From contig JAAYAK010000040.1 of assembly GCA_012719415.1 (NCBI GenBank), forward strand, positions 1 through 37,531: a stretch of 37,531 nucleotides of DNA. The letters run 5' to 3'. The notes under the pieces are model-generated. The model made no database searches. It saw only the letters and a list, made by a program, of their open reading frames with translations, and was not told where the DNA came from. The DNA is from Syntrophorhabdus sp. (GTDB lineage: Bacteria > Desulfobacterota > Syntrophorhabdia > Syntrophorhabdales > Syntrophorhabdaceae). Made by a program: the position numbers and the translations under genes. Shown one piece after another: positions 25,864 through 27,193 of this stretch (positions are counted from its first letter, which is position 1; each line of letters starts with the position of its first letter).

Positions 25864-26166
25864 ATGTATACGCGACTGATCCTGGTCAACTTCGGACCGG
25901 GGATGCATTCAACGGGGGAGATGGTGGCCGACACATTTGCCCCCATTTACAAGACGATGAGAGGATTCAAGGGGGCCACATTCTTTGCCGACCGTGATAC
26001 GGGAGAATGCGGCGCGTTGAGCCTCTGGGAATCGAAGGAAGATGCCGAAGCCGCCACAGTGAGCCTGTGGCCGAAGCTGCAGCAGGTCGCGGGCGGCCTT
26101 CTCAAAGGGCCGCCGCTCGTGCGGACCTTTGAGCTGTACGAACCGAAGGAACTGCCGCCCGAATAG
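25864..26166 (+). CDS. ABM-like dimeric alpha/beta-barrel protein
   Basis: 100 residues with the ferredoxin-like pattern of the antibiotic biosynthesis monooxygenase superfamily: strand YTRLILVNF, helix, then FKGATFFAD and GALSLWESKEDAEAA, the last being a strong family signature. Members bind small ligands or heme or act as monooxygenases; no catalytic claim is possible here. GGGGGTG precedes the ATG. A GC-rich hairpin (CCCCCG/CGGGGG) separates it from the stress protein. Confidence 0.75.
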   Translation: MYTRLILVNFGPGMHSTGEMVADTFAPIYKTMRGFKGATFFADRDTGECGALSLWESKEDAEAATVSLWPKLQQVAGGLLKGPPLVRTFELYEPKELPPE

Positions 26167-26169
26167 GAC

Positions 26170-26197
26170 TTGACAGATGAAGAAGACGTGCTATTAC
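26170..26197 (+). promoter_or_regulatory. Promoter for the candidate small RNA
   Basis: TTGACA (26170-26175), a 16-bp spacer and TATTAC (26192-26197). The -35 is consensus and the -10 is a 4/6 match. Confidence 0.45.
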
Positions 26198-26204
26198 TGT
26201 ACTA

Positions 26205-26352
26205 TATAGGGCGGATAAGCCCAGGCAACGAGTAAATGAAGGGACTATCTGAGTCGAAGGAGCCCAACTTCGAACCTCTTCATTGAAAGTCGAAAACAGG
26301 ATTCAAACGCGCGTGAACCTGTCGCAGCCTGGATATCCACCCTCTTTTTTTG
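26205..26352 (+). ncRNA. Candidate structured small RNA
   Basis: No ORF. A closing stem pairs GGATA (26213-26217) and CCAGGC (26221-26226) with GCCTGG (26327-26332) and TATCC (26334-26338). Inside are two hairpins: AATGAAG/CTTCATT (26235-26241 with 26278-26284) enclosing TCGAAG/CTTCGA (26254-26259 with 26268-26273), and CAGG-TTCA/TGAA-CCTG with one bulged A (26297-26305 with 26314-26321). A seven-T tract at 26345-26351 follows the closing stem. Promoter, three-way-junction-like fold and U-tract together support a discrete transcript of about 145 nt. It does not resemble SRP RNA, tmRNA or RNase P RNA as I know them. Several GGA motifs are present, as in CsrA-binding RNAs, but their loop placement is not convincing. 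Confidence 0.55.
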
Positions 26353-26484: not shown

Positions 26485-26513
26485 TTGACACTCAGGTGCT
26501 TTTATGCTAACAT
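26485..26513 (+). promoter_or_regulatory. Strong sigma70-type promoter upstream of the rnk-like gene
   Basis: TTGACA (26485-26490), exactly 17 bp, TAACAT (26508-26513). Transcription from here would give the rnk-like gene an untranslated leader of about 265 bases. Apart from this promoter and the RNA above, 26353-26785 shows no supported gene. Confidence 0.65.
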
Positions 26514-26785
26514 TCCTCATGTCCATCACGCCGACAGACGGTTTCCGTTACATCTTCCATCTCCCCGTGGACATTCCCAGGCTCGCCTTCAAGACAGCTC
26601 TTTAATACTGGATACCGAGCGCATCACCGGGGCGGGAAGCCGCACGCTTCCTTGGGTCCGATGGTGACCGCGATGCTCTTAAGGCGCTTGATGTCATGCA
26701 CATGGGGAACAATGAGACGGACCAAGACGTGATCGGCATGACGAAGGAACCCTCCTTCGCCAAAGAACGTACAGGGGGTGACGTT

Positions 26786-27193
26786 ATGAAGACTGGCGAA
26801 ATCTACATAACGGAGCACGACATGCGGAGGCTTCGGGCGTTGATCGAGATATACGGTGGGAGCGATAAACCCTATCTCGACCGCCTGGAGGAAGAACTCG
26901 ACAGGGCGAAGGTGGTAGGCCCCAGGGAGATTCCCGCAGACGTCGTCACCATGAACTCCGTCGTCCGCATCAGGGACCTCGATACCGGCGAAGAAAGGTC
27001 CTTCGCCCTTGTGTTCCCCAACAAGACGGCCATGGGTGAAAAGGCCATCTCCGTTCTGGCGCCCATCGGGACCGCTCTCATCGGTTGCCGCGAAGGTGAC
27101 AACCTCAACTGGGAGGTCCCGGCAGGAACAAGGAGAATACAGATAACCCAGATCGTCTACCAACCGGAGAGGATCGGCAACTATGACCTCTAG
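26786..27193 (+). CDS. rnk: Rnk-like GreA/GreB-family transcription factor
   Basis: 135 residues. A short N-terminal helical part (TEHDMRRLRALIE) is followed by a GreA/GreB C-terminal domain: SVVRIRDLDTGEERSFALVFP, ISVLAPIGTALIGCREGD and IQITQIVYQPE. Rnk proteins bind RNA polymerase in the secondary channel without the long GreA coiled coil and affect nucleoside diphosphate kinase levels in E. coli. The start at 26786 has GGGGGTGA ahead; the upstream open frame lacks homology. Confidence 0.88.
   Translation: MKTGEIYITEHDMRRLRALIEIYGGSDKPYLDRLEEELDRAKVVGPREIPADVVTMNSVVRIRDLDTGEERSFALVFPNKTAMGEKAISVLAPIGTALIGCREGDNLNWEVPAGTRRIQITQIVYQPERIGNYDL

What the first reader, a model, noticed from the sequence alone, without database searches (positions are those of the whole stretch)
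26205..26352. Candidate structured small RNA with own promoter and U-tract
A gene-free stretch holds a promoter-like pair, an 11-bp interrupted closing stem, two internal hairpins (one with 8 pairs and a bulged A), and a seven-T tract. The parts are ordered as in an independent small RNA. I cannot match it to a known class.
Basis: seen in the sequence. Interest (0 to 1): 0.65.

Follow-up and report, generated by a model that had tools for sequence, protein, structure and literature searches.

The report
New structured small RNA in Syntrophorhabdus
A stretch between two genes of a syntrophic bacterium encodes a roughly 146-letter folded RNA that matches no family in the Rfam library; copies in nine related genomes keep the same fold, promoter and end although the letters change, so it is very probably a real RNA gene whose job is still unknown.

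Summary
Window 26206-26351 (+) is one of 13 homologous copies in 9 genomes of class Syntrophorhabdia: ten in seven Syntrophorhabdus genomes (four copies in one), one in another genus of the family, and two in another family of the order. All 13 have TTGACA followed exactly 19 nt later by TG(C/T)T, an extended -10 promoter with a 16-nt spacer. All have a 146-165 nt body and a 3' T-rich tract. The fold is shared: a closing stem, P2/P2b and hairpin P3. Fourteen pairs change on both sides with pairing kept (shuffles 6.9 ± 1.6, 0/500 reach it). P2 carries an invariant AGUA/GAA, the signature of a bulged-G (sarcin-ricin) module. The P3 loop is self-complementary in 11/13 copies (13/13 with G·U). No Rfam family matches. 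6S RNA lies elsewhere in the genome, and the genome shows neither CsrA nor Hfq. Neighbour genes differ between copies. It is therefore a new, narrowly distributed, stand-alone structured RNA family. My preferred but unproven mechanism is a folded RNA acting through its shape, possibly as a loop-loop dimer, rather than an Hfq-type antisense RNA or a riboswitch. Transcription itself is untested.

The parts
26170..26197 (+). Promoter: -35 TTGACA 26170-26175, 16-nt spacer, extended -10 TGC-TATTAC (TG at 26189-26190, hexamer 26192-26197)
   Evidence: Sequence; TTGACA and TG(C/T)T exactly 19 nt apart in 13/13 copies
26206..26351 (+). Predicted small RNA, about 146 nt; start inferred from the promoter (about 26204-26208), end from the U-tract
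   Evidence: Fold z -3.38; 13 homologues; covariation
26209..26216 (+). P1 5' strand, GGGCGGAU, pairs with 26335-26342 (AUCCACCC)
   Evidence: the C-A mismatch is U-A in 4 copies and C-G in 1
26221..26226 (+). P1b 5' strand CCAGGC, pairs with 26327-26332 (GCCUGG); lies in the conserved AGCCCARGCA stretch
26228..26229 (+). P2a, 2 pairs below the AGUA/GAA module, with 26289-26290
   Evidence: Both pairs have double changes: AU/GC and CG/GC
26231..26234 (+). AGUA, opposite GAA at 26285-26287: putative bulged-G (sarcin-ricin / loop E) module
   Evidence: Invariant in 13/13 copies with a Watson-Crick pair above it that switches GC/AU; the 3D module is inferred from sequence signature
26235..26243 (+). 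P2 5' strand AAUGAAGGG, pairs with 26276-26284
26254..26273 (+). P2b hairpin, UCGAAG (26254-26259) with CUUCGA (26268-26273); loop variable
   Evidence: Stem rewritten as CGGAGUGA/UCACUCCG and CGAGUCU/AGACUCG in distant copies
26285..26287 (+). GAA strand of the AGUA/GAA module
26296..26322 (+). P3 hairpin with bulged A26301: ACAGG/CCUGU and UUCA/UGAA
   Evidence: Upper stem becomes UUUA/UAAA and CUCC/GGAG in relatives
26306..26313 (+). P3 loop AACGCGCG with self-complementary CGCGCG
   Evidence: Self-complementary 6-mer in 11/13 copies by Watson-Crick pairs, 13/13 with G-U
26327..26342 (+). 3' strands of P1b (26327-26332) and P1 (26335-26342)
26345..26351 (+). U7 tract directly after the closing stem; likely terminator
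   Evidence: T-rich tract in 13/13 copies; not scored by the terminator scan, which allows loops of 3-8 nt only

Best explanation
A stand-alone RNA gene. RNA polymerase starts about 7 nt after an extended -10 promoter and stops at the U-tract that follows the closing stem, giving a compact RNA of about 146 nt whose 5' and 3' ends are sealed together by P1. The RNA folds into a junction with a long arm (P2/P2b) carrying a bulged-G (AGUA/GAA) module and a short arm (P3) whose loop is self-complementary. I think it most likely works in trans through its folded shape, as a binding scaffold and possibly as a homodimer joined by P3 kissing loops, rather than by Hfq-assisted antisense pairing or as a leader of a gene. 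Shown by computation: homologous family, conserved promoter and end, conserved pairing, absence from Rfam, separate 6S, no CsrA or Hfq match. Inferred: transcript, 3D module, dimer, partner.
For: Family of 13 copies by covariance model (E 1e-20 to 1e-56). Promoter spacing exact in 13/13. Covariation 14 pairs against 6.9, 0/500 shuffles, at most 5 when slid; helices rewritten in distant copies. AGUA/GAA invariant. Loop self-complementary in 11/13, 13/13 with G-U; loop of G045a is UUGGCCA, unrelated in letters but still palindromic, and the two G045 loops pair with each other at -7.1 kcal/mol while pairing at only -0.1 to -2.3 with loops of other lineages. No intramolecular 5-mer partner for the loop except one chance case in G001. 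No Hfq, no CsrA in the window genome, 6S separate. Neighbours differ between copies; promoter-like site for the next gene at 26485-26513.
Against: No transcript data. The dimer rests on few independent loop types: 4.6% of random 8-mers hold a Watson-Crick palindrome of 6 and 14.7% do with G-U allowed, and GC-rich CGCGCG dominates; G045b pairs with itself only weakly (-1.8). The family is patchy: 5 of 12 Syntrophorhabdus genomes have no match, three of them over 90% complete, so it is not a housekeeping RNA. The bulged-G module is inferred from letters only.
Confidence: 0.5

Rival explanations
1. Antisense small RNA: the RNA pairs with messenger RNAs through exposed stretches such as the P2/P2b internal loop (GGGACUAUCUGAG) or the P3 loop, without Hfq.
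For: Own promoter and U-tract, several paralogues in one genome, exposed conserved stretches in the genus.
Against: No Hfq match in any of 12 genomes; both ends are locked in a stem; the internal-loop letters are not kept in the G045 copies while the helices are.
Confidence: 0.27
2. Cis-acting leader or riboswitch: the RNA ends early transcripts of the next gene and lets some through on a signal, with P1 plus U-tract as the terminator.
For: In G005 one copy lies 176 nt before usp and another 143 nt before a cold-shock gene, same strand.
Against: Downstream genes differ in every context and are on the opposite strand in G008; rnk/greA here has its own promoter-like site; the RfaM cspA leader match starts about 60 nt after the RNA in G005c.
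Confidence: 0.1
3. Protein-sequestering RNA of the 6S or CsrB type, or a divergent member of these.
For: Similar size; several GGA triplets; sealed ends as in 6S.
Against: A clear 6S gene lies elsewhere in the same genome (103.6 bits, gathering 46.4); no CsrA in the window genome; GGA triplets are not kept in loops of distant copies.
Confidence: 0.05
4. Not an RNA: a conserved DNA feature, mobile repeat or coding sequence.
For: Patchy and multicopy; the G-U count does not decide the strand.
Against: Compensatory changes, exact promoter spacing, stops in all frames, no match among phage or plasmid records, copies too diverged (73-88%) for recent transposition.
Confidence: 0.05

Closest known systems
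Stand-alone structured bacterial ncRNA candidates found by comparative genomics (the kind in Rfam)
   Same: Own promoter, terminator-like end, covarying fold, no fixed neighbour, unknown function.
   Different: No sequence or model match to any of the 4227 Rfam families; confined to Syntrophorhabdia in the searches done.
6S RNA (RF00013)
   Same: Size, ends sealed by a stem, trans-acting gene.
   Different: Not a single long hairpin with a central bubble; true 6S is present elsewhere in the genome.
OLE, ROOL and GOLLD RNAs (homo-oligomers, PMC12286853)
   Same: If the P3 loops kiss, an RNA-only homo-oligomer is the shared idea; kissing loops are among their contacts.
   Different: Those are large ornate RNAs; this is about 150 nt, and its dimer is only predicted.
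HIV-1 dimer initiation hairpin (from memory)
   Same: A short hairpin whose loop holds a 6-nt palindrome; used here only as a mechanistic analogy.
   Different: No homology; different context and organism.

Membership tests
Any Rfam 15 family | Match at or above gathering score | tested here: not met
   None in the window; only chance-level matches at permissive thresholds over the RNA in 13 copies
6S RNA | Matches RF00013 | tested here: not met
   The genome's 6S is on another contig, G000:C53:15875-16051
CsrB/RsmY-type CsrA sponge | CsrA encoded in the genome | tested here: not met
   PF02599 absent from G000 and from 11 of 12 genus genomes
CsrB/RsmY-type CsrA sponge | Repeated GGA in hairpin loops, conserved | tested here: not met
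   GGA not kept in loops of G045 copies
Hfq-dependent antisense sRNA | Hfq encoded in the genome | tested here: not met
   PF17209 absent from 12/12 genomes; controls ring
Riboswitch or leader | Constant position before a conserved gene class | tested here: not met
   Different or convergent neighbours
Stand-alone structured small RNA | Own promoter | tested here: met
   Exact TTGACA-to-TG spacing in 13/13; activity untested
Stand-alone structured small RNA | Conserved pairing with compensatory changes | tested here: met
Stand-alone structured small RNA | Discrete transcript | not testable with these tools
   No expression data held
Bulged-G (sarcin-ricin) module | AGUA/GAA between two helices | tested here: met
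   13/13, with a Watson-Crick pair above and compensatory pairs below; motif signature from own knowledge, 3D untested
Kissing-loop homodimer | Conserved self-complementary loop | tested here: inconclusive
   11/13 Watson-Crick, 13/13 with G-U, but few independent types

The most novel reading that the evidence does not exclude
A new class of short (about 150 nt) bacterial RNA that assembles into homodimers, and heterodimers between paralogues, through lineage-specific kissing loops, with a bulged-G module as the docking site for an unknown partner, acting without Hfq or CsrA.
Probability: 0.2. Interest if true: 0.72.

Novelty: new member of a known kind. Interest (0 to 1): 0.5.

Why it matters
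It adds a well-supported RNA family to a class of syntrophic anaerobes for which a literature search returned no small-RNA work, in genomes with no detectable Hfq and almost no CsrA, so it may show how such bacteria regulate by RNA. The self-complementary loop and the bulged-G module make simple, direct experiments possible on a short RNA.

Tried and rejected
Rfam at gathering and permissive thresholds: nothing. blastn in the family: only genus-level homologues; the covariance model was needed to reach other genera. Phylum-wide model search (395 genomes): only a 22-bit match in G359 that lacks the promoter and drops to 13 bits with the second model; rejected. Phylum-wide pattern with 2 mismatches: 11 genomes, about as many as the reversed control pattern, and only G000 and G029 confirmed by the model. 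Pattern scan of GTDB representative genomes: 23 stretches; the 7 confirmed are all in genomes already found. Viral contigs: one stretch, not confirmed; phages and plasmids none. Weak matches in G006, G020 and G038 are ordinary short terminators sharing only the P1 letters and T-tract. G-U/A-C asymmetry as a strand test: 26 against 24, inconclusive; strand is set by promoter and T-tract. A stress-gene theme (usp, hsp20, cspA, cstA near several copies) is noted but not tested statistically. Literature searches for Syntrophorhabdus small RNAs and for a DsrA-type palindrome gave nothing of use.

Full report
Observation. It folds at -49.1 kcal/mol against -35.75 +/- 3.95 for dinucleotide shuffles (z -3.38, 0/200). 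The closing stem is P1 (7 of 8 pairs) plus P1b (6 pairs); the hairpin with a bulged A is P3 (9 pairs).

Family. In Syntrophorhabdus (identified through G002, whose contig is Syntrophorhabdus sp. PtaB.Bin047), blastn finds ten copies in seven of twelve genomes, four of them in G005. A covariance model built from these adds one copy in another genus of the family, G029 (96 bits), and two in G045, another family of the order (60 and 48 bits). A second model from all 13 finds the same 13 and no more in 46 genomes of the class. Identity between copies falls to 44-53% for G045. Outside the class nothing survived checking, although the large searches score few candidates per genome and weak relatives may be missed. 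Five of twelve genus genomes lack it; G003 and G007 are incomplete, but G006, G009 and G010 are 92-99% complete.

It is an RNA. On the MAFFT alignment A6, which was made without reference to structure, the 37-pair structure forms standard pairs in 90.2% of cells. Fourteen pairs change on both sides (shuffles 6.9 +/- 1.6), 30 cells do (9.5 +/- 2.4), and no shuffle of 500 reaches any measure; sliding the partner strand gives at most 5 pairs. The shuffle control ignores relatedness and the structure was partly derived from these sequences, so the number is not a probability, but whole helices are rewritten in the distant copies: P2b UCGAAG/CUUCGA becomes CGGAGUGA/UCACUCCG in G029 and CGAGUCU/AGACUCG in G045b; P3b UUCA/UGAA becomes UUUA/UAAA in G008 and CUCC/GGAG in G029 and G045. 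No reading frame is kept.

It is its own transcription unit. In 13/13 copies TTGACA and TG(C/T)T lie exactly 19 nt apart, i.e. a 16-nt spacer to the -10, and the body ends in a T-rich tract. In the window the next gene, a Rnk/GreA-type protein, has a promoter-like site of its own at 26485-26513. The neighbours are not constant: usp and a 100-aa unknown protein upstream here; hsp20 and usp, PAS and Nramp, a cold-shock gene, or an unknown 333-aa protein in G005; CstA and a macro-domain protein in G011; a convergent PAP2 gene in G008; FHA in G029; a kinase region in G045b. The G005 copies do not form one clade (G005d groups with G011, support 90; G005a with G005b, 72), so duplication is probably older than the species, with later losses; support is modest.

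P2 is interrupted by AGUA opposite GAA in all 13 copies, with a Watson-Crick pair directly above that switches G-C (9) and A-U (4) and two pairs below that also covary; in six Syntrophorhabdus copies one nucleotide bulges just above. AGUA/GAA is the signature of the bulged-G (sarcin-ricin) module (own knowledge; the motif is discussed in PMC8450098, which I did not find to print these letters). The P3 loop is 8 nt and contains a self-complementary 6-mer: CGCGCG, GCGCGC or, with unrelated letters, UGGCCA in G045a; 11/13 by Watson-Crick, 13/13 with G-U. The loops of the two G045 paralogues pair with each other (-7.1 kcal/mol) but not with those of other lineages. That pattern is what kissing between copies in one cell would give, but independent loop types are few and a random 8-mer has a 4.6% (14.7% with G-U) chance.

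What it is not. No Rfam match. 6S RNA is elsewhere in the genome (103.6 bits). CsrA is absent from the window genome and 10 of the other 11, Hfq from all 12; profile searches can miss divergent proteins, but both rang in control genomes.

Mechanism. Existence as an RNA gene: about 0.93. That it acts in trans through its folded shape rather than by pairing or in cis: about 0.5. That it dimerises through P3: about 0.2-0.25. Nothing here identifies a partner. The novelty is that of a new family within a known kind, the stand-alone structured bacterial RNAs.

Noticed in passing
window 25864-26166 (+): A 100-aa protein (MYTRLILVNFGPG...) directly before the RNA has no Pfam match but is 83-97% identical in eight other Syntrophorhabdus genomes, next to usp in several.
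   Followed up: partly
window 26485-26513 (+): A strong promoter-like site (TTGACA-17-TAACAT with TG) that probably serves the Rnk/GreA-type gene 26696-27193.
   Followed up: no
L051 8286-8438 and 10381-10536; L053 8564-8728; L050 7607-7761: Several copies lie near stress or starvation genes (hsp20, usp, cspA, cstA). Suggestive of a stress role, not tested statistically.
   Followed up: partly
genomes G000-G011: Syntrophorhabdus genomes show no Hfq and, with one exception (G003), no CsrA by profile search, while keeping 6S RNA.
   Followed up: partly
L062 1501-1530, L064 1501-1535: Ordinary terminators in relatives share the GGGYGGA/UCCACCC letters and T-tract of P1, so this part alone is not diagnostic of the family.
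   Followed up: yes
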